From positions 62,001 to 126,000 of the forward strand of contig JANEZZ010001479.1 of assembly GCA_026122225.1 (NCBI GenBank): DNA of 64,000 bases, in the 5' to 3' direction. This document shows, in pieces, positions 1,544-60,421 of the stretch. Source of the stretch: Heloderma charlesbogerti. Lineage: Eukaryota > Chordata > Lepidosauria > Squamata > Helodermatidae. The position numbers were made by a program, and so were the translations under genes. The number at the start of each line of letters is the position of its first letter. The stretch's first letter is position 1. The notes below the pieces were generated by a model. It was given only the letters and a program-made list of their open reading frames with translations. It did no database searches and was not told the DNA's origin.

Positions 1544-2231
1544 TAGGGATGTACGAAAGCCACTTACCGTTTTGCGGATTTGCTTCGCGGTGGGGGGGGA
1601 GGCGCTCTGTCCCTCCCCCCGGAATCCTGCCTGGCTGGCTCTGCTCCGCGGGGATTCCGCGGAGCCGCCATCTGGCTCCGCCCACAGCCGGACATCCGGC
1701 CGCTGGGCAGCAGGGACACAAATGGCGGTGGCCGTAGCCACAGCCGTTTGCATCCCTGTACTTAACCATGATAGGCTACATAAATATTTACATAGCCTAT
1801 CACGGCAATGTAAAAAAAACCACATACGCAAATGGCGGCGGCTACAGCGGCCGCCATTTGCGTTTGCTATTTTTTGCCGTTCTAGCCTACGTAAATATTT
1901 ACGTAGGCTAGAACGGTGAAAAATAGCGAACGCAAATGGCGGCCGCCGTAGCTGCCGCCATTTGCGTACGCTGCGCCCAGCTAGGAGACCAGCCACCCCT
2001 GCCCCCACCACAACTGCCCCCCGCAACTGCTGCCCCTGCCGCCGCACCTTCCGCCGCCGCACCTTCCACCGCCGCTGCCACTGCCGCATCCACCGCAGGT
2101 AAGCTTCATCCCGGAGGGTTCTGCAGGGCGGGTGGGGGGGCAAGAGGCCCTTCCGCCACGGATTCTGGGGGGCCGAATGCCAGTGCATTCGGCCTCACTG
2201 GAATCTGTGGCAGAATTCTCCACCATCCCTA
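1544..2231 (+). mobile_element. hAT-type hairpin-array transposon, copy 1 (non-autonomous)
   Basis: The element begins TAGGGATGTACGAAAG and ends CACCATCCCTA, and is flanked by exact 8-bp direct repeats CTTACACC (1536-1543 and 2232-2239), the duplication size of hAT transposases. Its 688 bp encode no transposase. The interior alternates GC-rich palindromes (GCAAATGGCGGC and complement) with AT-centred ones (CTACGTAAATATTTACGTAG). The left end has the GGATTTGC and GGCGCTCTGTCCCTCCCC blocks, the right end the CCGAATGCCAGTGCATTCGG hairpin. Open frames across it are by-products of CpG-rich repeats and palindromic symmetry, not genes. Confidence 0.9.
1847..1946. repeat. 100-bp nested palindrome inside hairpin-array copy 1
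   Basis: The centre lies between 1896 and 1897. The inner 40 bases (1877-1916) are a perfect palindrome, and symmetry continues with few mismatches out to GCGGCC at 1847 and GGCCGC at 1946. The arms carry GCCGCCATTTGCG and its complement, so neighbouring GC-rich and AT-rich hairpins belong to one larger foldback. Confidence 0.9.
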
Positions 2232-3204: not shown

Positions 3205-3384
3205 CAGTGGAGACTGGTGGCTCCGATGTCAGTGGGGCGGTGAATCCATGCCAGGTTTCAGTCACAACCAGTCAGAACTCTAAAGGAGGTATCCAAGGTG
3301 CTCCTTTAGAGTTCTGACTGGTTCTGACTGAAACCCGGAGTGGATTCACCACCCCACTGACATCGGAGCTTCCAGCCTCCACTG
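3205..3384. repeat. 180-bp foldback element, arms about 80 bp
   Basis: The left arm starts CAGTGGAGACTGGTGGCTCC and includes ACCAGTCAGAACTCTAAAGG. The right arm is its near-perfect reverse complement, ending GGAGCTTCCAGCCTCCACTG. Only about 15 bases separate the arms near 3290-3300. A more decayed copy is at 32855-33085, so it is a dispersed inverted-repeat family and not a local hairpin. Confidence 0.85.
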
Positions 3385-3389
3385 ATGGA

Positions 3390-4252
3390 TAGGGATATAT
3401 GAGGAATTCATTTCAGTTCATTTTTATCAGGATTTACCCAGTTTGCACTCTACAAACTCAGTGCGGACTTGGACGCAATTGAAGTCCGTCCATTTCCGAG
3501 CTTGCAGTGTGATTCGTGGGCTGAAAATATAGATGCGTTCGACAGCGTGCGTACCTTTGAAAAGCACGCATGAAAAATGCATACTTTTAAAATATGTGCA
3601 CAACACACTTTAATGAATGTGGGGATGTACAAATCCCCTACCTGCCAGTCCAGGGGGGGGTGTCCATGGGGTGGAGGAGGCGATCCGTTCCTCCCCCTGG
3701 AATCCTCACGGGCTGGCTCTGCTACGCGGCGATTCTGTGGAGCCGCCAGCCGGCTCTGAAGCGCCAGTGATACGGTTGCCATGCCGTATCGCTGGCTGAA
3801 GGGGACTACTGACCGCTACCACAAATGGTGTCCCGGACGCCATTTGCGTCCGTTAAGGTCTTAGTTTAAGGTAAACGCAGCCGTAAATGGCTGCATTTAC
3901 CTTAAACTAAGGCCTTTATGGACGCAAATGGTGTCCCAGACGCCATTTGTGTCCACAGTCAGTAGTCCCCTTCAGCCAGCGATATGGCATGGCGGCCTTA
4001 TCGCTGGCAATCCAGAGCCGGAGGAATTCTCCGTCATCCCTAAATGAATGGGAGAAAAATGCATACATTTCAAAGATGTGGACAACTGATGCATACACTT
4101 GGAAAATATGCATGAAATACGCACAGATGTTTATGCAAAAAGAGAAAAACAAAGCTCGCGATCTGATATGGACATGACACGGAACAAGCTTTGGACAACA
4201 AGAATTTGGACAACTTCGATGAGCTCAGGTTTTGCTGATTCGCACATCCCTA
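3390..4252 (+). mobile_element. small hAT-type element, TTTCAGTTCATTTTT family, interrupted
   Basis: The left part (3390-3611) and right part (4051-4252) match the uninterrupted relatives at 42860-43314 and 60957-61393: TTTCAGTTCATTTTTATCAG near one end and GATTCGCACATCCCTA at the other. It is split by the 423-bp hairpin-array copy 2. Flanks share ATGGAT, but an exact 8-bp duplication is not clear. No transposase is encoded. Confidence 0.8.
3620..4042 (+). mobile_element. hAT-type hairpin-array transposon, copy 2, nested in another element
   Basis: Ends are TGGGGATGTAC and GTCATCCCTA. Flanks are the exact 8-bp repeat AATGAATG (3612-3619 and 4043-4050). Removing the element and one repeat restores CTTTAATGAATGGGAG, which matches the uninterrupted relatives (TTTAATCAATGGGAG at 21177), so the empty site is visible within the window. 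The interior is one large foldback: GATACGG...GTATCGCTGGCTGAAGGGGA is mirrored by CCCCTTCAGCCAGCGATAT, with ACGCCATTTGCGTCC motifs and a centre near 3890. Confidence 0.93.
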
Positions 4253-9330: not shown

Positions 9331-9399
9331 TGAAATGGAGTTTGGCCTTGGGATGAAAGAGGTTCTGGACGCCTGGTCTGCACTGACCAGCAGCTGCTC

Positions 9400-14201: not shown

Positions 14202-14959
14202 TAGGGATGTGGGAGAATTTCTCCATGAATCTCTGGGAGGCCGAATGCCAACACATTCGGCCCCCCGAAATTGGTGGAGAAACGGTCCGCCCCCCCTGCC
14301 CCCCCCGGGATGGGACTTACCTTTGTCGAATGTCCCTGGTGGCGGCGGCTCCTGGCGGTGGTTCGGCGGCGGCGGCGGCTGGTCTTCCGACCGGCTGCCG
14401 CCACCGCCATTTCCAAGTAAAACAACAACAACAACAACAACAAACGTGATAGGCTACGTAAAGATTTACGTAGCCTATCACGGCTAGATTTTCAAAAAAC
14501 ACTGTGATAGGCTATGTAAATGTTTACGTAGCCTATCACAGCTAGATTTTCAAAAAACACTGTGATAGGCTATGTAAATGTTTACGTAGCCTATCATGGC
14601 TGATTTTGGAAAAAAAAAAGCGCATATGCAAATGGCGGCGCCCATGGGCGCCGCCATTTGCGTACGTGCTTCCCCCCCGCAAAGTCAGCCATGATAGGCT
14701 ACCTAAACATTTATGTAGCCCATCAAGGCTGACTGCAGGGACGCAAACGGCAGTGGCTACGGCCGCCGCCATTTGCGTCCCGGCAGGAGACGAGATTCGC
14801 GGCCGGAGGGACGGGGCGCCTCCCCCCCGGCCAGAATTTCGGCGGGGAGGGATGGGGTGCCTCCCACCCTGCCCAGAATTTCAGGGGGAGGGACGGAGCG
14901 CCTCCCCCCCACCATGAAGCAAGCTGCGGGACCAGGTAAGGGACTTTCGTCCATTCCTA
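14202..14959 (-). mobile_element. hAT-type hairpin-array transposon, copy 3, nested in a SINE
   Basis: The order is reversed relative to copy 1: it begins TAGGGATGTGGGAGAATTTC with the CCGAATGCC hairpin side and ends GGGACTTTCGTCCATTCCTA. The exact 8-bp repeat CTTGAAAC flanks it (14194-14201 and 14960-14967). Removing it restores CTGCTTGAAACTCTGGAGAG, as in the SINEs at 15215 and 45420. The interior has three similar CTACGTAAA or CTATGTAAA palindromes spaced about 58-60 bp apart, a perfect 34-bp GC-rich palindrome and G/C-rich ends. No transposase. Confidence 0.93.
14628..14661. repeat. perfect 34-bp palindrome
   Basis: The half GCAAATGGCGGCGCCCA is followed directly by its exact reverse complement. 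It is the cleanest example of the GC-rich hairpin unit in this family. Confidence 0.97.
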
Positions 14960-16143: not shown

Positions 16144-16387
16144 GTGTAGACAATACTGAGCTATATGGACCAGCGGTCTGACTCAGGACAAGGCAACTTC
16201 ATATCTTCATTAGGAGCCTCCGTAGCTCAGGGTCTGGATTTCTATTTTGGAGTTCGGACCCTACCTCTGCATTGTACTTCTTGAGCAAGTTATTATTTTT
16301 TTAGTCTCCCCTTTTTGCCATCTTGGAAATGAGTGTTTTGTGGCCAGTCATGCCTGCTGTGGCAGCCATTTTGTGAGAGCTCTCATG

Positions 16388-19300
16388 TTGTTGTTGTTCA
16401 GTCGTTCAGTCGTGTCTGACTCTTCGTGACCCCATGGACCATAGCACGCCAGGCCTTCCTGTCCTGCGCTCTCTCCCGGAGCGTGCTCAAGTTCATATTC
16501 ATTGCATCCATGATGCTATCTAGCCATCTCATCCTCTGCCGTCCCCTTCTCCTTTTGCCTTCAGTCTTTCCCAGCATCAGGGTCTTTTCCAGAGAGGCTT
16601 CTCTTCGCATTAGGTGGCCAAAATATTGGAGCTTCAGCTTCAGTATCTGTCCTTCCAATGAGCAGTCAGGGTTGATTTCCTTTAGGATGGACTGATTTGA
16701 CCTCCTTGCAGTCCAGGGGACTCGTAAGAGTCTTCTCCAGCACCACAGTTCGAAAGCATCAATTCTTCGGCGCTCAGCCTTCCTTATAGTCCAGCTCTCA
16801 CAGCCATACATTACTACTGGGAAAACCATAGCTTTGATTAGACGGACCTTTGTCGGCAAGGTGATGTCTCTGCTTCTTACTATGCTGTCTAGGTTTGCCA
16901 TAGCTTTCCTCCCAAGGAGCAAGCGTCTTTTAATTTCATGGCTACAGTCACCGTCTGCGGTGATCTTGGAGCCCAAGAAAGTAAAATCTGTCACTGCTTC
17001 CATTTCTTCCCCTTCTATATGCCAGGAAGTGATAGGGCCAGATGACATGATCTTAGTTTTTTTAATGTTGAGTTTCAAACCAGCTTTTGCACTCTCCTCT
17101 TTCACCCTCAACAAGAGGCTCTTGAGATCCTCTTCGCTTTCTGCCATTAGGGTGGTATCGTCTGCATATCGGAGGTTGTTGATAATTCTCCCGGCAATCT
17201 TAATTCCGACCTCTGATTCATCCAACCCGGCATTTCTCATGATGTACTCTGCATATAAGTTAAATAAGCAGGGTGACAATATGCAGCCTTGTCGTACTCC
17301 TTTCCCAATTTGGAACCAATCGGTTGTTCCATCTCTGGTTCTTACTGTTGCTTCTTGACCCTCGTACAGGTTTCTCAGGAGACAGGTAAGGTGGTCTGGT
17401 ACTCCCATCACTTTCAGAATTTGCCACAGTTTGTTGTGATCCACACAATCAAAGGCTTTAGCGTAGTCAATGAAGCAGAAATAGACGTTTTTCTGGAATT
17501 CTCTTGCTTTCTCCATGATGCAGTGAATGTTGGCGATTTGATCTCTAGTTCCTCTGCCTCTTCGAAACCCAGCTTGTACTTCCGGTAGTTCTCGGTTCGC
17601 ATACTGCTGAAGCCTAGCTTGTAGGATTTTGAGCATCACCTTGCTGGCATGTGAAATGAGCGCAATTGTGCGGTAGTTTGAACACTCTTTGGCGTTGCCC
17701 TTCTTTGGAATTGGAATGTAAACTGACCTTTTCCAGTCTTGTGGCCACTGTTGAGTGTTCCAGATTTGTTGGCATATTGAATGCAGCACTTTAACAGCAT
17801 CATCTTTTAGGATTTTAAATAGCTCGGCTGAAATACTGTCATCTCCGCTAGCTTTGTTGTTACTAATGCTTCCTAAGGCCCACTTGACTTCACTCTCGAG
17901 GATGTCCGGCTCAAGTTCAGTGACCGCACTATCATGGCTATCAGGGACATTCAGATCTTTCCTGTATAGTTCTTCTGTGTATTCTTGCCACCTCTTCTTA
18001 ATCTCATCTGCTTCTGTTAGGTCCCTGCCTTCTTTATCCTTTATCATGCCCGTCTTTGCACAAAACGTTCCCTTGAGATCTCCAATTTTCTTGAAGAGAT
18101 CTCTAGTCTTTCCCATTCTGTTGTTTTCTTCGATTTCTTTGCACTGTTCATTTAAGAAGGCCTTCTTGTCTCTCCTTGCTATTCTCTGGAACTCTGCATT
18201 CAGTTGGGTATATCTTCCCCTTTCTCCCTTGCTTTTCGCTTCCCTTCTTTCGTGAGCTACTTGTAAAGCCTCCTCAGACAGCCACTTTGCTTTCTTGCAT
18301 TTCTTTTTCTTTGGGACGGATTTCGTTGCTGCCTCCTGAACAATGTTATGGACCTCCGTCCATAGTTCCTCAGGCACTCTGTCTATCAGGTCTAATCCCT
18401 GAAATCTATTCCTCACCTCCACTGTATATTCATCAGGGATATGATTTAGGTCATACCTGAACGGTTTAGTGGTTTTCCCGACGTTCTTCAATTTAAGCCG
18501 AAATTTTGCAAGAAGCAGCTCATGATCTGAGCCACAGTCAGCTCCAGGTCTTGTTTTGACTGACTGTATGGAGCTTCTCCATCTTTGGCTGCAAAGGACA
18601 TAATCAATCTGATTTCGATATTGACCATCTGGTGACGTCCACGTGTAGAGTCGCCTCTTGTGCTGTTGGAAAAGAGTGTTTGCTATGATCAGCATGTTCT
18701 CTTGGCAAAACTCTATTAGCTTTTGTCCTGCTTCATTTTGTACACCAAGGCCATGCCTGCCTGTTATCCCGGTGATTTCTTGACTTCCTACTTTAGCATT
18801 CCAATCCCCTATGATGAAGAGGACATCTTTTTTTGGTGTTAGTTCTAGAAGGTGTTGTAGGTCTTCATAGAACCGATCCACCTCAGCTTCTTCGGCCTCA
18901 GTGGTTGGGGCATAGACTTGAATTACTGTGATGTTGAATGGTTTGCCTTGGATTCGTACTGAGATCATTCTATCATTTTTAAGATTGTACCCCAGTACTG
19001 CTTTTCCCACCCTTTTGTTGACGATGAGTGCTACTCCATTTCTTCTAAGGGATTCTTGCCCACAATAGTAGATATGATGGTCACCTGAATTAAATTCGCC
19101 CATGCCTGTCCATTTTAGTTCGCTGATTCCCAAGATGTCGATGTTCAATCTTGCCATCTCATGTTTGACCACCTCCAACTTACCTTGATTCATTGATCTG
19201 ACATTCCAGGTTCCTAAACAATATTGTTCTTTACAGCATCGGATTTTCTTTTCACCGCCAGACACATCCACAGCTGAGTGTCCTTTCGGGTTTGGCCCAG

Positions 19301-19607
19301 CCGCTTCACTCTTTCTGGCACTACTTGGAAATACCCTCTGCTCTTCCCCAGTAGCATATTGGACACCTTCCGACCTAAGGGGCTCATCTTCCGGCGTCAT
19401 ATCTTTTAGCCTTGTGATACATTCCATGGGGTTTTCTTGGCAAGAATACTGGAGTGGGTTGCCATTTCCTTCTCCAGCGGACCACATTTTGTCAGAACTC
19501 TCTGCCATGACCTGTCCGTCTTGGGTGGCCCTGCACGGCATAGCTTATGGCTTCACTGAGTTACGCAAGCCCCTTCGCCACAACAAGGCAGTGATCCGTG
19601 AAGGGGG
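16388..19607 (-). mobile_element. BovB: full-length BovB (RTE-clade) LINE, apparently intact
   Basis: About 3.2 kb on the minus strand, starting CCCCCTTCACGGATCACTG (19607 downwards) and ending GACTGAACGACTGAACAACA with AAC repeats. The copy at 49420 begins with the same CCCCCTTCA, which marks a true 5' end. The 10-bp repeat AGCTCTCATG flanks it (16378-16387 and 19608-19617). Both termini, the duplication and an unbroken reading frame suggest a recent insertion. It landed in an older repeat whose right end reads GTTAGGGACCCCTG at 19666. Confidence 0.95.
16398..19541 (-). CDS. BovB endonuclease-reverse transcriptase polyprotein, 1047 residues, open
   Basis: This protein copies the LINE's own RNA into the genome: an AP-type endonuclease nicks the target, then the reverse transcriptase primes from the nick. 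Endonuclease residues in order: TWNVRS (N113), SELKW (E141), YAPT (Y210), IGDWNAKVG (D246, N248), IDYVL (D313) and SDH (338-340). Reverse transcriptase: NNKASGDDS (561-569), PIPKKGNAKECSNYRTIAL (610-628), QAGFRRGRGTRDQ (656-668), FIDYAKAFD (690-698), GVRQGCILSPCLFN (748-761) and YADD (792-795). A C-terminal region with WCWRRLL follows. All catalytic residues are present with no stop or frameshift. The start is the first Met of the open frame; translation must begin before residue 113, but the exact start is uncertain. It may still be active. Confidence 0.93.
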   Translation of the reverse strand: MPCRATQDGQVMAESSDKMWSAGEGNGNPLQYSCQENPMECITRLKDMTPEDEPLRSEGVQYATGEEQRVFPSSARKSEAAGPNPKGHSAVDVSGGEKKIRCCKEQYCLGTWNVRSMNQGKLEVVKHEMARLNIDILGISELKWTGMGEFNSGDHHIYYCGQESLRRNGVALIVNKRVGKAVLGYNLKNDRMISVRIQGKPFNITVIQVYAPTTEAEEAEVDRFYEDLQHLLELTPKKDVLFIIGDWNAKVGSQEITGITGRHGLGVQNEAGQKLIEFCQENMLIIANTLFQQHKRRLYTWTSPDGQYRNQIDYVLCSQRWRSSIQSVKTRPGADCGSDHELLLAKFRLKLKNVGKTTKPFRYDLNHIPDEYTVEVRNRFQGLDLIDRVPEELWTEVHNIVQEAATKSVPKKKKCKKAKWLSEEALQVAHERREAKSKGERGRYTQLNAEFQRIARRDKKAFLNEQCKEIEENNRMGKTRDLFKKIGDLKGTFCAKTGMIKDKEGRDLTEADEIKKRWQEYTEELYRKDLNVPDSHDSAVTELEPDILESEVKWALGSISNNKASGDDSISAELFKILKDDAVKVLHSICQQIWNTQQWPQDWKRSVYIPIPKKGNAKECSNYRTIALISHASKVMLKILQARLQQYANRELPEVQAGFRRGRGTRDQIANIHCIMEKAREFQKNVYFCFIDYAKAFDCVDHNKLWQILKVMGVPDHLTCLLRNLYEGQEATVRTRDGTTDWFQIGKGVRQGCILSPCLFNLYAEYIMRNAGLDESEVGIKIAGRIINNLRYADDTTLMAESEEDLKSLLLRVKEESAKAGLKLNIKKTKIMSSGPITSWHIEGEEMEAVTDFTFLGSKITADGDCSHEIKRRLLLGRKAMANLDSIVRSRDITLPTKVRLIKAMVFPVVMYGCESWTIRKAERRRIDAFELWCWRRLLRVPWTARRSNQSILKEINPDCSLEGQILKLKLQYFGHLMRREASLEKTLMLGKTEGKRRRGRQRMRWLDSIMDAMNMNLSTLRERAQDRKAWRAMVHGVTKSQTRLND

Positions 19608-22823: not shown

Positions 22824-23990
22824 TACAGATGTTGCGGGAGTCCGAGAGGGGGGTGGAGCCTGGTGGACTCCCCCCGGCTTGGCCTCCTGGACTCTAGTCT
22901 GTGGACCACTGCGCTGCCCGACTCGGCGCTCTGAGTTGGGCAAGCACGGTGGTCCCCACTGGGCTGCCGAGCTGCCATTTTGAATAAAAATGGCAGCTCA
23001 TTCTTTTATGGTCATTTGGATAGGGACCATTTACGTCTGTAATCTTGAGTAGATGGCTGCTTTGCGCTGCCGTGTGCGTAAAAAGCCTGTCATGTAAAAC
23101 AGCAGGTCACAATTTTTACGCAAATACGCCTGTAATCTTGAGTAGATGGCTGCTTTGCGCTGCCATGTGCGTAAAAAGCCTGTCATGTAAAACAGCAGGT
23201 CACAATTTTTACGCAAATACGCCTGTAATCTTCAGTAGATGGCTGCTTTGCGCTGCCGTGTGCGTAAAAAGCCTGTCATGTAAAACAGCAGGTCACAATT
23301 TTTACGCAAATATGCCTGTAATCTTGAGTAGATGGCTGCTTTGCGCTGCCGTGTGCGTAAAAAGCCTGTCATGTAAAACAGCAGGTCACAATTTTTACGC
23401 AAATACGCCTGTAATCTTGAGTAGATGGCTGCTTTGCGCTGCCGTGTGCGTAAAAAGCCTGTCATGTAAAACAGCAGGTCACAATTTTTACGCAAATACG
23501 CCTGTAATCTTGAGTAGATGGCTGCTTTGCGCTGCCGTGTGCGTAAAAAGCCTGTCATGTAAAACAGCAGGTCACAATTTTTACGCAAATACGCCTGTAA
23601 TCTTGAGTAGATGGCTGCTTTGTGCTGCCGTGTGCGTAAAAAGCCTGTCATGTAAAACAGCAGGTCACAATTTTTACGCAAATACGCCTGTAATCTTGAG
23701 TAGATGGCTGCTTTGCGCTGCCGTGTGCGTAAAAAGCCTGTCATGTAAAACAGCAGGTCACAATTTTTACGCAAATACGCCTGTAATCTTGAGTAGATGG
23801 CTACTTTGCGCTGCCGTGTGCGTAAAAAGCCTGTCATGTAAAACAGCAGGTCACAATTTTTACGCAAAATGGGAGCCTTGCTGAGAGATCGGGTGGCCGT
23901 GCACTGCTGAGCGGGTGCCCACAGGGGCAGCCGGCTGGCAGGGGCCTGGTGAGTGGCGCAAGGTGGACTTGGGTGAGTTGCCCATCCCTG
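22824..23990 (+). mobile_element. hAT-like element carrying a nine-unit 93-bp array
   Basis: The right end CCCATCCCTG is the inverted CAGGGATG terminus; the left end TACAGATGTTGCGGGAG is a poorer match. Flanks are AATTAAGG (22816-22823) and AATTAGAG (23991-23998), matching at 6 of 8, and both fit nnnTAnnn. GC-rich ends surround the minisatellite, so the array appears to be transposon cargo. The weak left end keeps this tentative. Confidence 0.6.
23034..23868 (+). repeat. 93-bp minisatellite, nine near-identical units, each with a hairpin
   Basis: Units begin near AATCTTGAGTAGATGG and repeat every 93 bp. Each contains GCGTAAAAA and, about 30 bases later, TTTTTACGC, so every unit can fold. Differences between units are single bases (for example GCGC to GTGC at 23621). 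Because 93 divides by three, open frames of 279 codons on the plus strand and 211 on the minus strand run through; these are by-products, not proteins. Confidence 0.95.
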
Positions 23991-26479: not shown

Positions 26480-27286
26480 TAGGGATGTTGGAGAATTCCA
26501 CCACAGACTCCAGTGAGGCCGGATTCTTTAGAATCCGCCCCCCCGGAGTCCATGGCAGAATGGCCTCCCCTCCCCACCACCCCCTAAAATCCCCCAGGGA
26601 ACGGACCTACCTGGCGGCTGATACAGCGGTGGTGGTGGATGCGGCGGCAGCGGCTCCAGCTCGTCTTCCGGCCACTGCCGGGCAGCTGCGGCCGCAAATG
26701 GCAGCCGTCGTAGCAGCTGCCATTTGCGTCCCTGCCTTTTGCCGTGATAGTAGCCTATCACGACTTAATGCAAGGACGCAAATGGCGGCCGCTGTGCCAT
26801 TTGCGTCCCTGCCTTTTGCCGTGATAGACTACATAAATACTTACGTAGCCTATCACGGCAAAAGGCAGGGGTACAAATGGTGGCCGCTACGCCGTTGGCA
26901 TCCCTGCTCTTTGCCGTAATAGGCTACGTAAGTATTTACGTAGCCTATCATGGCCTACGGCAGGGATACCAATGGCCGCCATTGTAGTGTAGTGGCCGCC
27001 ATTTGCATCCCTGCCTTTTGCCGTGATAGGCTACGTAAATACTTACGTAGCCTATCACGGCTTAATGCAAGGACGCAAATGGCGGCCGCTATGGCGGCCT
27101 CCATTTGCAGCCGCAGCAGCCCGGCAGTGGCCGGACGTTCAGCTGCGGCCGGCCCCAGCCAACGGCTCCACAGCCTTGCTGCAGAGCAGAGCTGGCTGGG
27201 GAAGATTCCGGGGAGAGGGACGGAGCACCTTCCCTCCACCGTTGAAGCCCCGGACCGGAACCAGATAAGGGATTTGTACATTCCTA
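26480..27286 (-). mobile_element. hAT-type hairpin-array transposon, copy 4
   Basis: 807 bp, reversed orientation as in copy 3. It starts TAGGGATGTTGGAGAATTCC and ends GGGATTTGTACATTCCTA. Flanks AGTTCAGG (26472-26479) and TGTCCAGG (27287-27294) match at 6 of 8. The interior has at least four AT-centred palindromes (CTACATAAATACTTACGTAG, CTACGTAAGTATTTACGTAG, CTACGTAAATACTTACGTAG and a collapsed one at 26748) alternating with GCAAATGGC hairpins. Predicted open frames here are repeat artefacts. Confidence 0.88.
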
Positions 27287-37231: not shown

Positions 37232-37889
37232 TAGGGGTGTACGAAATCAACTAACCTTTCCGATCCGGGGCGTCTGCGGGGGGGGGGGGCGGGGAGGCGA
37301 TCTGTCCCTCCCCCCGGAATCCTCCCTGGCTGGCTCTGCTCTGCGGTGAGTCTGTGGAGCCGTGGTCAGGGTCCGTTTGCAGCCGGACTTCCGTCCGCTG
37401 CCGGGCTGCGGCCGCAAATGGCGTCAGGCATAGGGGATGCCATTTGTGTCCCTGCTTTAGCCGTGATAGGCTACGTAAATCTTTACGTAGCCTATCACGA
37501 AAAGAGCAGGGACGCAAATGGAGTAGCGGCTGCCATTTGCGTCCCCTGCTCTTTGACGTGATAGGCTATGTAAATCTTTATGTAGCCTATCGTGCGAAGG
37601 AACAGGGACGCAAATGGTGTATTTGTGTCCCTGTTCCTTCACTTAGCCTATCACATCAAAGAGCTACGCCGGCCGCCATTTGCGTCTGCAGTTCGTCAGT
37701 CCATCCAGCGATATGGCAATGGCGGCCGTATCGCTGGGGCTTCAGAGCTGGTGGCAGGCAGGATCCGCCGGCGAGGACTTCACGACAGAGGAGGAGGTAG
37801 GGGATCCGATCCTCCACAGACTTCGGGGTGCCAGATTCAATAGAATCCAGCCTCATTGGGGTCCGTGGAGGATTTCTCCAACATCCCTA
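37232..37889 (+). mobile_element. hAT-type hairpin-array transposon, copy 5
   Basis: 658 bp starting TAGGGGTGTACGAAATC and ending TTTCTCCAACATCCCTA, flanked by the exact 8-bp repeat TCAGCAGT (37224-37231 and 37890-37897). The left end has the G-rich tract and GGCGATCTGTCCCTCCCC. The interior has CTACGTAAATCTTTACGTAG and CTATGTAAATCTTTATGTAG palindromes and GCAAATGG hairpins. The right part GCGATATGGCAATGGCGGCC is shared with copy 2, so copies recombine or derive from one another in blocks. Confidence 0.93.
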
Positions 37890-45547: not shown

Positions 45548-46417
45548 TAGGGATGTACGAAAGTCGCTTACGGTTTCGCGGATCTGCTTCACGGTGTGGG
45601 GGGGAGGCGCTCTGTCCCTCCCCCTGGAATCCTCGATGGGGAGGGAGGTGCTCCGTCCCTCCCCCCGGAGTCCTGCCTGGCTGGCTCCGCTCTGCGGGGA
45701 TTCCGCAGAGCTGCCGGCTGGCTCCACCCGCAGCTGGACATCCAGCCGCTGGGCAGCAGGGACGCAAATGGTGGCTGCTGTAGCTGCTGCCATTTGCATC
45801 TCTGTATTTAACCATGATAGGCTACGTAAATATTTACGTAGCCTATCATGGCAAAGTAAAAAAAAAAAAGTGTATGCAAATGGCGGCAGTTACGGCGGCC
45901 GCCATTTGCTTTCCTTATTTTTCACCATTTTAGTCTACTATTATGTAGACTATTACATAGACTATTACGGCGAAAATAAAGGGGAATGCAAATAGCGTAG
46001 TGGGCGCTATTTGCATTCCCTTTTGATTCGCCGTTTTAGCCTACGTAAATATTTACGTAGACTAAAACGGCAAAAAATAAGGAACGCAAATGGCGGCCGC
46101 TACACCGTTTTTTTTTTTTTACCCAGACATGATAGGCTACGTAAGTCTTTACGTAGCCTATCACATCTGGTTAAAAAAAACAAAAAAGACCAGACTGCAA
46201 ATGGCGGCCGTGGCAGCTGGTCGGAAGACCAGCTGCAGCTGCAGCCGCTGCTGGAGCCACCGCCGTCCGGAACATCTGCCCCAGGTAAGTCTCGTCCCAG
46301 GAGGGATCCGCGGGGGGGCGGGGGGGTGGGAGGCCGTTCTACCACGGGTTTCGAGGGCCCGAATGCCAGTGCATTCGGCCTCACCAAAATCCGTGGCGGA
46401 ATTCTCCGCCATCCCTA
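45548..46417 (+). mobile_element. hAT-type hairpin-array transposon, copy 6, longest
   Basis: 870 bp starting TAGGGATGTACGAAAGTCGC and ending ATTCTCCGCCATCCCTA, flanked by the exact 8-bp repeat TGCTCAGT (45540-45547 and 46418-46425). It has four AT-centred palindromes (centres near 45831, 45945, 46050 and 46145), alternating with GC-rich ones, and the CCGAATGCCAGTGCATTCGG hairpin near the right end. Compared with copy 1 the left end block is partly duplicated (GGCGCTCTGTCCCTCCCCC then GGTGCTCCGTCCCTCCCCC). Confidence 0.93.
45812..45851. repeat. perfect 40-bp palindrome
   Basis: CCATGATAGGCTACGTAAAT is followed directly by its exact reverse complement. It is the cleanest AT-centred hairpin in copy 6. 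Confidence 0.97.
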
Positions 46418-49419: not shown

Positions 49420-52400
49420 CCCCCTTCATGGATCACTGCCTTGTTGTTGCGAAGGGGCTTGTGAAGCCATAAGCTATGCTGTGCAGGGCCACCCAAGACG
49501 GACAGGTCATGGCTGAGAGTTCTGACAAAATGTGGTCCACTGGAGAAGGAAATGGCAACCCACTCCAGTATTCTTGCCAAGAAAACCCCATGGAACGTAT
49601 CACAAGGCTAAAAGAGATGACGCCGGAAGATGAGCCCCTCGGGTCGGAAGGTGTCCAATATACTACTGGGGAAGAGCAGAGGGAATTTCCAAGTAGCGCC
49701 AGAAAGTGAAGCGGCTGGGCCAAAGCCAAAAGGACACTCAGCTGTGGATGTGTCTGGTGGTGAAAAGAAAGTCTGATGCTGTAAAGAACAATATTGTTTA
49801 GGAACCTGGAATGTAAGGTCAATGAATCAAGGTAAGCTGGAGGTGGTCAAACATAAGATGGCAAGATTGAACTGCAACATCTTGGGAATCAGCGAACTAA
49901 AATGGACAAGCATGGGCGAATTTAATTCAGGTGACCATTATATCTACTACTGTGGGCAAGAATCCCTTAGAAGAAATGGAGTAGCACTCATCGTCAACAA
50001 AAGGGTGGGAAAAGCAGTACTGGGGTACAATCTCAAAAACGATAGAATGGTCTCAGTACGAATCCAAGGCAAACCATTCAACATCACAGTAATTCAATTC
50101 TATGCCCCAACCACTGAGGCTGAAGAAGCTGAGGTTGATCGGTTCTATGGAGACCTACAACACCTTCTAGAACTAACACCAAAACAAGATGTCCTCTTCA
50201 TCATAGGGGATTGGAACGCTAAAGTAGGAAGTCAAGAAATCACCAGGATAACAGGCAAGCATGGCCTTGGTGTACAAAATGAAGCAGGACAAAGGCTAAT
50301 AGAGTTTTGCCAAGAAAACACGCTGATCATAGCAAACACTCTTTTCCAACAGCACAAGAGGCGACTCTACACATGGACATCACCAGGTGGTCAATATCGA
50401 AATGAGATTGATTATGTACTTTGCAGCCAAAGATGGAGAAGCTCCATACAGTCAGTAAAAACAAGACCTGGAGCTGACCGTGGCTCAGATCATGAGCTGC
50501 TTCTTGCAAAATTTCGGCTTAAATTGAAGAACGTAGGGAAAACTACTAAACCATTCAGGTATGACCTCAATCATATCCCTTATGAATATACAGTGGAGGT
50601 GATGAATACATTTCAAGGATTAGACCTGATAGACAGAGTGCCTGAGGAACTATGGACAGAGGTCTGTAACATTGTTCAGGAGGCAGCAACTCAATCCATC
50701 CCAAAGAAAAAGAAATGCAAGAAAGCCAAGTGGCTGTCTGATGAGGCTTTACAAGTAGCTGAGGCAAGAAGGGAAGCGAAAAGCAAGGGAGAAAGGGGAA
50801 GATATACCCAACTGAATGCAGAGTTCCAGAGCATAGCAAGGAGAGTCAAGAAGGCCTTCTTAAATGAACAATGCAAAGAAATGGAGGAAAACAGTAGAAT
50901 GGGAAAGACTAGAGATCCCTTCAAGAAAATCGGAGATCTCAAGGAAACGTTTTGTGCAAAGATGGGCATGATAAAGGACAAAGAAGGCAGGGACCTAACA
51001 GGAGCAGATGAGATTAAGAAGAGGTGGAAAGAAGACACAGAAGAACTATACAGGAAAGATCTGAATGTCCCTGACAGCCATGATAGTGCGGTCACTGAAC
51101 TTGAGCTGGACATCCTCGAGAGTGAAGTCAAGTGGGCCTTAGGAAGCATTACTAACAACAAAGCTAGCGGAGATGACAGTATTCCAGCTGAGCTATTTAA
51201 GGTCCTAAAAGATGATGCTATTAAAGTGCTGCACTCAATATGCCAACACATTTGGAACACTCAGGAGTGGCCACAAGACTGGAAAAGGTCAGTTTACATT
51301 CCAATTCCAAAGAAGGGCAACGCCAAAGAGTGTTCCAACTACCGTACAATTGCGCTCATTTCACATGCCAGCAAGGTTATGCTCAAAATCCTACAAGCTA
51401 GGCTTCAGCAGCATGTGAACCGAGAACTACCGGAAGTACAAGCTGGGTTCCGAAGAGGCAGAGGAACTAGAGATCAAATCGTCAACGTTCGCTGGATCAT
51501 GGAGAAAGCAAGAGAATTCCAGAAAAATGTCTATTTCTGGTTCATTGACTATGCTAAAGCCTTTGATGGTGTGGATCACAACAAACTGTGGCAAATTCTT
51601 AAAGAGATGGGAGTACCAGACCACCTTACCTGTCTCCTGAGAAACCTGTACGAGGGTCAAGAAGCAACAGTAAGAACCAGACATGGAACAACCGATTGGT
51701 TCAAAATTGGGAAAGGAGTATGACAAGGCTGCATATTGTCACCCTGCTTATTTAACTTATATGCAGAGTACATCATGAGAAACGCCGGGTTGGATGAATC
51801 ACAGGTCGGAATTAAGATTGCCAGGAGAATGATCAACAACCTCAGATACGCAGACGATACCACCCTAATGGCAGAAAGCAAAGAGGATCTAAAGAGCCTC
51901 TTGTTGAGGGTGAAAGTGGAGAGTGCAAAAGCTGGTTTGAAACTCAACATTCAAAAAACGAAGATCATGGCATCTGGCCCCATCACTTCCTGGCATACAG
52001 AAGGGGAAGAAATGGAAGCAGTGACAGATTTTATTTTCTTGGGCTCCGAGATCACCACAGATGGTGACTGTAGCCATGAAATTAAAAGACGTTTGCTCCT
52101 TGGGAGGAAAGCTATGGCAAACCTAGACAGCTTAGCAAGAAGTAGAGACATCACCTTGCCGACAAAGGTCTGCATAATCGAAGCTATGGTTTTCCCAGTA
52201 GCAACGTACGGCTGTGAGAGATGGACTATAAGGAAGGCTGAGTGCCAAAGCATTGATGCTTTTGAACTGTGGTGCTGGAGAAGACTCTTGCGAGTCCCCT
52301 GGACTGCAAGGAGGTCAGATCAGTCCATGCTAAAGGAAATCAACCCTGACTGCTCATTGGAAGGACAGATGCTGAAGCTGAAGCTCAAATATTTTGGCCA

Positions 52401-52634
52401 CCTAATGCGAAGAGAAAACTCCCTGGAAAAGACCCTGATGCTGGGAAAGACTGAAGGCAAAAGGAGAAGGGGACGGCAGAGGATGAGATGGCTAGATAGC
52501 ATCACCGGTGCAATGAATATGGACTTGAGCACACTCTGGGAGAGAGTGCAGGACAGGAAGGCCTGGCGTGCTCTGGTCCATGGGGTCACGAAGAGTCGGA
52601 CACGACTTAACGACTGAACAACAACAACAACAAC
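49420..52634 (+). mobile_element. BovB: full-length BovB (RTE-clade) LINE, inactivated
   Basis: 3215 bp starting CCCCCTTCATGGATCACTGC and ending GACTGAACAACAACAACAAC. It is flanked by the exact 8-bp repeat AGTCCAAA (49412-49419 and 52635-52642). Full length and almost collinear with the minus-strand copy at 16388-19607. Confidence 0.95.
49476..52617 (+). pseudogene. BovB endonuclease-reverse transcriptase, three disabling changes
   Basis: Compared with the intact frame at 16398-19541, this copy has a 2-bp deletion near 49706, a TGA at 49774-49776 and a TGA at 51721-51723. Both stops replace CGA (arginine) codons, as expected from CpG deamination. Between stops the endonuclease (ISELKW, IGDWNAKVG, SDH) and reverse transcriptase (FIDYAKAFD, then YADD after the second stop) sequences are well kept. 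It cannot supply its own protein, but its RNA could in principle be used by the intact copy's protein. Confidence 0.93.
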
Positions 52635-60119: not shown

Positions 60120-60139
60120 CCTGATCTCGTGATCACCTG

Positions 60140-60305
60140 ATGTGACGCGCCCAATCTTGTCTGATCTCAGAAGCTAAGCAGGGTCAGCCCTGGTTAGTAC
60201 TTGGGTGGGAGACCGCCTGGGAATCAGGCTTCCTGCATGGAGCAGGGGGTTGGACTCGATGGTCTTGTAGGCACCTTCCCACCCTATGATTCTATGATTC
60301 TATTC
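60140..60305 (+). mobile_element. 5S-rRNA-derived head joined to a CR1 3' tail
   Basis: CCAATCTTGTCTGATCTCAG, AAGCTAAGCAGGGTCAGCCC, TGGTTAGTACTTGGGTGGGA and GACCGCCTGGGAA follow vertebrate 5S rRNA closely, including the internal promoter. At 60220 the sequence switches to CR1 3' end (CCTGCATGGAGCAGGGGGTT, GGACTCGATGGTCTTGTAGG, ATGATTCTATGATTCTATTC). The join makes a SINE-like unit with its own promoter and a tail CR1 machinery could use. It is not a functional 5S gene: the 3' third is absent. Confidence 0.82.
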
Positions 60306-60309
60306 TGGG

Positions 60310-60421
60310 GCTGGGGCAGGATAGCAGCTACCATAAAAATGGTGGAGAATCTCTGGAGACAACTCTGTGAAGTGCCTACCCAGCATGATGGTGAGAAAAA
60401 AAGTCTTAGCAGAAATTTTGA

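What the first reader, a model, noticed from the sequence alone, without database searches (positions are those of the whole stretch)
1544..2231. A hAT-type transposon family whose cargo is a chain of alternating palindromes
Seen directly: six copies (1544-2231, 3620-4042, 14202-14959, 26480-27286, 37232-37889, 45548-46417) share TAGGGATG-type ends and 8-bp flanking repeats: exact CTTACACC, AATGAATG, CTTGAAAC, TCAGCAGT and TGCTCAGT, plus AGTTCAGG/TGTCCAGG at 6 of 8. Eight-base duplications and these short inverted ends fit the hAT superfamily. Unlike ordinary MITEs the interior is a series of hairpins of two alternating types, so a half-unit of roughly 50 bp is repeated head-to-head and tail-to-tail. 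I know of no described family with this build, but could not search.
Basis: partly seen in the sequence, partly recalled or inferred. Interest (0 to 1): 0.92.

Follow-up and report, generated by a model that had tools for sequence, protein, structure and literature searches.

The report
Palindrome-chain hAT transposons with splice donors
A reptile-like genome holds tens of thousands of short jumping-DNA copies built from chains of mirror-image hairpins, apparently moved by a large parent transposon found in the same genome, and most examined copies carry an outward-pointing RNA-splicing start signal at each end.

Summary
All six window copies end in TAGGGATG-type termini; five have exact 8-bp duplications and one 6 of 8. 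Of 29 window and genome copies kept, 20 have exact duplications. Interiors are chains of two palindrome types with centres about 51 bp apart, between one "A" and one "B" end. The 2.3-Gb genome has 82,398 A ends (28-mer, up to 3 mismatches; control 0).

A candidate autonomous partner was found: 9,387 bp, exact duplication CACAACAC, an 879-aa open frame with BED and hAT domains, and a 3' end made of the same palindromes and A end. Its 5' end occurs 144 times. So these are non-autonomous hAT elements.

Unexpectedly, both ends carry a near-consensus 5' splice donor (AGGTAAGT) facing outward: at least 9 bits in 25 of 29 A ends and 24 of 29 B ends, inward strands 0 and 1. It is in 88 of 100 A ends listed without asking for it. 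Hairpin arms match in type in 104 of 105 cases.

Membership in hAT is secure. The chain as a transposase-binding array, and the donors as working splice sites, are inference. Repbase and Dfam could not be searched.

The parts
1544..2231 (+). palindrome-chain hAT element, copy 1 (A end left, B end right), TSD CTTACACC
3620..4042 (+). copy 2, short divergent member (A left, B right), TSD AATGAATG; interior mostly one palindrome, arms 3750-3882 and 3889-4021 at 84%
14202..14959 (-). copy 3 (B left, A right), TSD CTTGAAAC
26480..27286 (-). copy 4 (B left, A right), TSD AGTTCAGG/TGTCCAGG 6 of 8
37232..37889 (+). copy 5 (A left, B right), TSD TCAGCAGT
45548..46417 (+). copy 6 (A left, B right), TSD TGCTCAGT
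1825..1968 (.). copy 1: long internal palindrome made of half-units, arms of 72 bp, 67 of 72 matching
1764..1806 (.). copy 1: example of a B-type palindrome
   Evidence: (family D6)
2096..2104 (+). copy 1: B-end outward donor CAG|GTAAGC (11.1 bits)
1562..1570 (-). copy 1: A-end outward donor, altered ACG|GTAAGT (10.3 bits)
3636..3644 (-). copy 2: A-end outward donor CAG|GTAGGG (9.0 bits)
14315..14323 (-). copy 3: B-end outward donor AAG|GTAAGT (12.5 bits)
14933..14941 (+). copy 3: A-end outward donor CAG|GTAAGG (11.6 bits)
26605..26613 (-). copy 4: B-end outward donor CAG|GTAGGT (10.1 bits); its A-end site reads CAGATAAGG (lost)
37250..37258 (-). copy 5: weak A-end site AAG|GTTAGT (8.4 bits)
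37794..37802 (+). copy 5: weak B-end site GAG|GTAGGG (8.0 bits)
46282..46290 (+). copy 6: B-end outward donor CAG|GTAAGT (12.6 bits); its A-end site reads ACCGTAAGC (lost)

Best explanation
These are non-autonomous (MITE-like) hAT elements, most likely mobilised by a roughly 9.4-kb autonomous hAT transposon of the same genome. Shown: 8-bp duplications; one A and one B end; a candidate autonomous element with a BED plus hAT transposase frame whose 3' end carries the same palindromes and A end; 82,398 A ends against 144 autonomous-type 5' ends. Inferred: the transposase assembles on the ends through its BED finger, and the palindromes are an expanded array of inverted subterminal binding sites inherited from the autonomous 3' end, lengthened by inverted duplication, which would help short copies compete for transposase (about 45% likely as the role of the chain). 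Shown as sequence only: 21 of 29 copies have a strong 5' splice donor facing outward at both ends, so in either orientation a transcript crossing such a copy meets one near its downstream edge. Inferred: it is bound by U1 and affects host transcripts, or lets transcripts begun in the CpG-rich element splice outward (about 50% that it acts as a donor at all).
For: TSDs 20 of 29 exact. Candidate autonomous locus C235:52195-61581, TSD CACAACAC exact; second locus C2152:192574-202686, TSD ATTTGTAT exact, read from its two flanks (its middle was not fetched). Transposase: Dimer_Tnp_hAT 1.3e-16 and zf-BED 6.8e-05; Hermes structure 3.6e-15. 55 of the 100 listed 5' ends (144 in all) have a scored transposase hit 2-16 kb downstream on the same strand, 0 on the opposite strand. 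Copy counts. Arms same type 104 of 105; in mixed copies 70 of 71 against a within-copy shuffle maximum of 57. Donors.
Against: No transposition, binding or RNA data; autonomy is inferred. The B half of the short elements (palindromes, donor) is not in the two autonomous-type copies as far as read: their 5' ends match the B model weakly (13.5 and 13.2 bits), and the 9,387-bp element has only one AGGTARGT, at 9362 on the plus strand, none on the minus strand. So a source of the B half is missing. A at target position 7 is not enriched (6 of 20). The donor matrix is recalled human data and the best site per end was taken. Four of 29 A ends and 5 of 29 B ends score below 9 bits, among them A ends of window copies 26480, 37232 and 45548.
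Confidence: 0.8

Rival explanations
1. The conserved AGGTAAGT is not a splice donor but a transposase site: the BED finger of Hermes binds AAGT, with a quasi-palindrome at bases 11-27 of its left end, and here AAGTCACTT sits at bases 14-22 of the A end.
For: Position and motif match the Hermes passages (PMC10368747); the transposase has a BED finger; 61 of 100 A ends carry AAGTnACTT.
Against: Of the 39 of 100 A ends without AAGTnACTT, 31 still have a donor of 9 bits or more, some at shifted distances (22, 25, 28 bp). The B end has the motif without that palindrome, 81-174 bp inside. Changes seen are mostly those a donor tolerates: A or C at -3, A or G at +4, T, G or C at +6. Another protein with the same core cannot be excluded, and both roles could overlap.
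Confidence: 0.3
2. The palindromes are kept for RNA: transcripts fold into hairpins feeding small-RNA or editing pathways, which spares or silences the family.
For: Folding z-scores of -13 to -33 on both strands of the six window copies; arms of each palindrome are of matched type.
Against: DNA palindromes fold as RNA whatever they are kept for. Arms are far from perfect (3.1 mismatches in 20). No RNA data.
Confidence: 0.2
3. The chain is a mutational by-product (hairpin template switching or inverted duplication) without function, carried along by ends that transpose well.
For: Variable chain length and order; nested palindromes with arms up to 140 bp; median identity of only 74% to the nearest sampled copy, while the flanking duplications differ at 8 of 208 sites in the 26 copies with one (counted).
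Against: 28 of 29 copies have B palindromes (20 of the 29 were chosen by a B-arm 15-mer) and the autonomous 3' end has palindromes too, which suggests a use.
Confidence: 0.3
4. An ordinary hAT MITE family that repeat databases already hold under some name.
For: Abundant hAT MITE families are well known (recalled); Repbase and Dfam could not be searched.
Against: Nothing matching appeared in the listings of the ten paper searches, which do not cover repeat databases.
Confidence: 0.25

Closest known systems
Ac/Ds of maize (hAT), especially Ds1
   Same: TAGGGATG-type terminus (recalled) and splice donors near the ends: Ds1 has 3 donors and 2 acceptors, all within 35 bp of the termini (passages of PMC5432752)
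   Different: here near-consensus donors at both ends, facing outward, no conserved acceptor shown, and a palindrome chain inside
Hermes (hAT, house fly)
   Same: transposase similarity 3.6e-15; BED finger binding short subterminal repeats, two of them in a quasi-palindrome (passages of PMC10368747)
   Different: Hermes repeats are scattered AAGT-type motifs; here longer alternating palindromes of two kinds
hAT-6_XT and its 800-bp derivative (turtles, fishes, frog)
   Same: vertebrate hAT with a short non-autonomous derivative (passages of PMC11008031)
   Different: palindromes and splice donors are not mentioned in the passages seen; sequences were not compared
Foldback-type elements (Galileo PMC4168063, Tm1 PMC3169594; listings only)
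   Same: inverted repeats dominate the element (recalled)
   Different: other superfamilies; here the terminal inverted repeats are short and the palindromes internal
Introners (PMC9860276; listing only)
   Same: many short mobile copies with splice sites (recalled in part)
   Different: introners make introns; here only donors were found conserved, facing outward

Membership tests
hAT superfamily | 8-bp target-site duplication | tested here: met
   20 of 29 exact, 26 of 29 at 6/8 or better; both autonomous-type loci exact
hAT superfamily | target pattern nTnnnnAn (recalled) | tested here: inconclusive
   20 exact duplications: T at 2 in 14, A at 7 in 6; the two together 20 of 40
hAT superfamily | short terminal inverted repeats | tested here: met
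   TAGGGATG at both ends, little further identity
hAT superfamily | transposase with RNase-H-like core and hAT dimerisation domain in an autonomous relative | tested here: met
   PF05699 1.3e-16, BED 6.8e-05; Hermes 3.6e-15 in two aligned stretches (which residues are catalytic is recalled)
hAT superfamily | excision with hairpin-type footprints | not testable with these tools
   no empty sites compared, no live assay
MITE | short, non-coding, high copy, ends shared with an autonomous element | tested here: met
   423-1231 bp, 82,398 A ends; A half shared with the autonomous 3' end, B end only in its first bases
MITE | A+T-rich interior (usual, recalled) | tested here: not met
   GC 0.52-0.61 in 29 copies
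Foldback elements | long terminal inverted repeats making up the ends (recalled) | tested here: not met
   A and B ends differ beyond the first bases
Introners | supply the splice sites of a new intron | tested here: inconclusive
   donors strong; best acceptor of at least 10 bits in 11 of 29 and 13 of 29 strands against 5.5% of base-shuffled controls, many of them poly-T tracts; no RNA

The most novel reading that the evidence does not exclude
A mobile bidirectional first-exon cassette: the CpG-rich palindrome chain with ATGGCGGC (YY1-like, recalled) sites acts as a two-way promoter, and both ends splice outward into host DNA, so that transposition has scattered tens of thousands of potential outward-splicing promoters or U1 docking sites through one vertebrate genome.
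Probability: 0.25. Interest if true: 0.88.

Novelty: new variant of a known kind. Interest (0 to 1): 0.66.

Why it matters
It ties a very abundant vertebrate-genome transposon family (an estimated 3% of the genome) to a probable parent with long open transposase frames, so the role of subterminal palindromes in hAT mobility can be tested directly. If the outward donors work, it would be an unusual case of a DNA transposon that spreads splice sites facing both ways into host genes, of interest for new exons and for how genes tolerate insertions.

Tried and rejected
Rejected or led nowhere: (1) Satellite or tandem array: copies are dispersed with target duplications. (2) Foldback family: ends are short and unlike each other. 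(3) Structured RNA family: Rfam gave only a 5S-like hit elsewhere in the window. (4) Peptides of the element in predicted proteins: a 124-aa translated reading frame found none among 26 candidates at E up to 1. (5) Conserved acceptors: inconclusive. (6) A search of phage records gave no match, as expected. (7) The internal CATCCCTACTACACAC after the transposase stop is not an end, since the nine aligned copies go on alike beyond it (L049 differs by one base there). (8) Whether short elements nest in the autonomous one more than by chance: four cases, too few to say. (9) A genome-wide count of the B-donor context did not complete and was left undone.

Limits: the 29 copies are not random (20 chosen by a hairpin 15-mer); the 100 strings are the first listed of 16,185 and have intact outer and inner anchors. 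Taking the best-scoring site inflates donor scores somewhat; inward strands and interior got the same treatment. Shuffles keep base composition only. The estimate of 3% of the genome is 82,398 times the median copy length of 807 bp and assumes full-length copies.

Full report
What is in the window. The six places are as described. Each has one end that I call A (mostly TAGGGATGTACGAAA...) and one that I call B (TAGGGATGnnnGAGAATT...), and 8-bp duplications, five exact and one 6 of 8. The window is eukaryotic and looks squamate: it holds an open BovB-like LINE frame of 1,048 aa (family by recall), and the five best-scoring relatives of the partner's transposase are from lizards and geckos (P0001-P0005).

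Genome-wide. The window lies in a 2.302-Gb assembly of 3,246 contigs. The hairpin 15-mer GATAGGCTACGTAAA is there 114,539 + 114,314 times (reversed control 0 and 2), and the first 28 bases of the A end, up to 3 mismatches, 41,208 + 41,190 = 82,398 times (control 0 and 0). Of 29 copies kept (31 pairs printed, two dropped), 20 have exact 8-bp duplications and 26 at least 6 of 8. In those 26 the two flanks differ at 8 of 208 sites, which suggests young insertions. Yet the median identity to the nearest other sampled copy is 74% (best local match of at least 250 bp; 28 copies had one), so the source elements seem very diverse. Mean CpG observed/expected is 0.91 against 0.33 for the whole window.

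The chain. Palindrome centres of the two kinds, where adjacent, lie a median of 51 bp apart (119 intervals), so the half-unit of about 50 bp holds. Alternation is not strict: B-B neighbours at 58 bp are common, and nested palindromes with arms up to 140 bp occur. B palindromes (105 in 28 of 29 copies) fall into three arm types that I defined by six central bases. The two arms of one palindrome are of the same type in 104 of 105 cases (shuffles at most 72), and in the 17 copies with more than one type in 70 of 71 (within-copy shuffles mean 40, maximum 57). Mean mismatches are 3.10 of 20 within a palindrome, 4.47 between palindromes of one copy and 4.36 between copies; shuffled partners give 4.35, lowest 3.88. 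So arm types change on both sides together, as inverted duplication or hairpin-templated repair would give (inference).

The candidate autonomous partner. A search for the hAT dimerisation domain gave 150 scored matches of 871 candidates, 17 of them in open frames of 870-908 aa. Three-prime flanks of 12 were fetched (one cut short by a contig end) and nine aligned. Then two loci were read, one whole and one at both sides. C235:52195-61581 is 9,387 bp between exact CACAACAC duplications, its last two bases reading AA instead of TA. C2152:192574-202686 lies between exact ATTTGTAT duplications and carries a nested short element. Both begin TAGGGATGTCAGAGAAATTCTC, and both end in a palindrome chain and the A end with AAGGTAAGTGACTTTC. 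The 879-aa frame, stop to stop, has a BED finger and the hAT C-terminal domain and aligns with Hermes in two stretches. Sixty proteins are related at E up to 0.001 among the 7,997 candidates scored, the best 41% identical over 98% of the searched part, from Sceloporus. The 5' end (31-mer, up to 3 mismatches) occurs 74 + 70 = 144 times (control 0 and 0); of the 100 listed, 55 have a scored transposase match 2-16 kb downstream on the same strand, none on the other (only the 150 scored of 871 candidates could be matched). On the opposite strand, near the 3' end, lies an open frame with a Myb/SANT-like domain (PF13837, 5.4e-09), 96% identical as protein in the second locus, its last codons overlapping a GTAAGT. 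The A half of the short elements is thus shared with the autonomous 3' end; the B end is shared only in its first bases.

The outward donors. Aligning the ends showed a conserved ACTTACCT reading inward at both, that is AGGTAAGT reading outward. With a recalled human donor matrix (maximum 12.64 bits), the best outward site has a median of 12.48 bits at both ends. It is at least 9 bits in 25 of 29 A ends (22-24 bp from the tip) and 24 of 29 B ends (81-174 bp), in both ends of 21 copies, against 0 and 1 of 29 on the inward strands and 1 and 2 of 29 on the interior strands. In the 9,387-bp element AGGTARGT occurs once on the plus strand, starting 26 bp from the end, and not on the minus strand. 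To avoid picking copies by the motif, I searched for the outer 14 bases, 22-44 free bases and GGGGAGGCGC: 8,019 + 8,166 places (control 0). Of the 100 listed, 88 have an outward donor of at least 9 bits, none on the other strand. The 12 misses include three with GC for GT, two with AT for GT, several just under 9 bits, and deletions.

Donor or transposase site. Hermes binds AAGT through its BED finger, with a quasi-palindrome at bases 11-27 of the left end (passages of PMC10368747). AAGTCACTT at bases 14-22 of the A end would fit. But 39 of the 100 A ends lack AAGTnACTT and 31 of these keep the donor, some at shifted distances (57 of the 61 with it have the donor). The B end has no such palindrome, and the changes seen are mostly those a donor tolerates. 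I therefore prefer a splice donor, without excluding another binding protein or a double role. Near-terminal donors are known from Ds and Ds1 in plants (passages of PMC5432752), in other arrangements.

How it may work. Shown: hAT-type ends and duplications, a matching candidate autonomous element, copy numbers, matched arms, conserved outward donor-like sites. Inferred: the palindromes multiply inverted binding sites near the end and so favour the short copies; the donors either spare host genes by holding U1 near the element's downstream edge or send transcripts outward. ATGGCGGC, like a YY1 site by recall, is present 3.28 times per copy on average (28 of 29 copies; base shuffles 0.05), and CpG is rich, which together would fit a two-way promoter. 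No RNA data bear on this.

Known or not. No database of eukaryotic repeats was available. Ten paper searches gave no family with this build in their listings; beyond listings I saw passages of three papers and one abstract. Verdict: a real, very abundant, MITE-like hAT family with a candidate parent, unusual in its palindrome chain and in the outward donor-like sites at both ends.

Noticed in passing
C235:60203-60661 (L062:1304-1762, minus strand) and L064:1293-1754: Second gene in the autonomous hAT: an open frame with a Myb/SANT-like DNA-binding domain on the strand opposite to the transposase, its last codons overlapping a GTAAGT (possible exon end); 97.8% identical DNA with an in-frame 3-bp gap in the second locus.
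   Followed up: partly
L050, L051, L059 and L063 (nested element L063:1325-2286): Four sampled stretches at autonomous hAT copies hold a B end of the short elements (L051 and L059 by HMM, L050 by eye, L063); the one in L063 is complete, flanked by CAGCGGCC/CAGTGGCC.
   Followed up: partly
window 16386-19556 and 49461-52629: Two 95-96% identical copies of a LINE in opposite orientation 30 kb apart; the first has an open frame of 1,048 aa resembling BovB (name recalled).
   Followed up: no
window 60125-60241: 5S rRNA-like sequence just above the Rfam cut-off (38.9 against 38 bits), overlapping a member of a CR1-like repeat family at 60202-60316 (CR1 by recall); possibly a 5S-derived SINE or a fusion.
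   Followed up: no
window 22939-23982: 93-bp tandem repeat, most copies 98% alike, with open frames of about 285 aa on both strands.
   Followed up: no
window 3205-3384: Another hairpin repeat with CAGTGGAG...CTCCACTG ends, between copies 1 and 2; looks like a different short inverted-repeat element.
   Followed up: no
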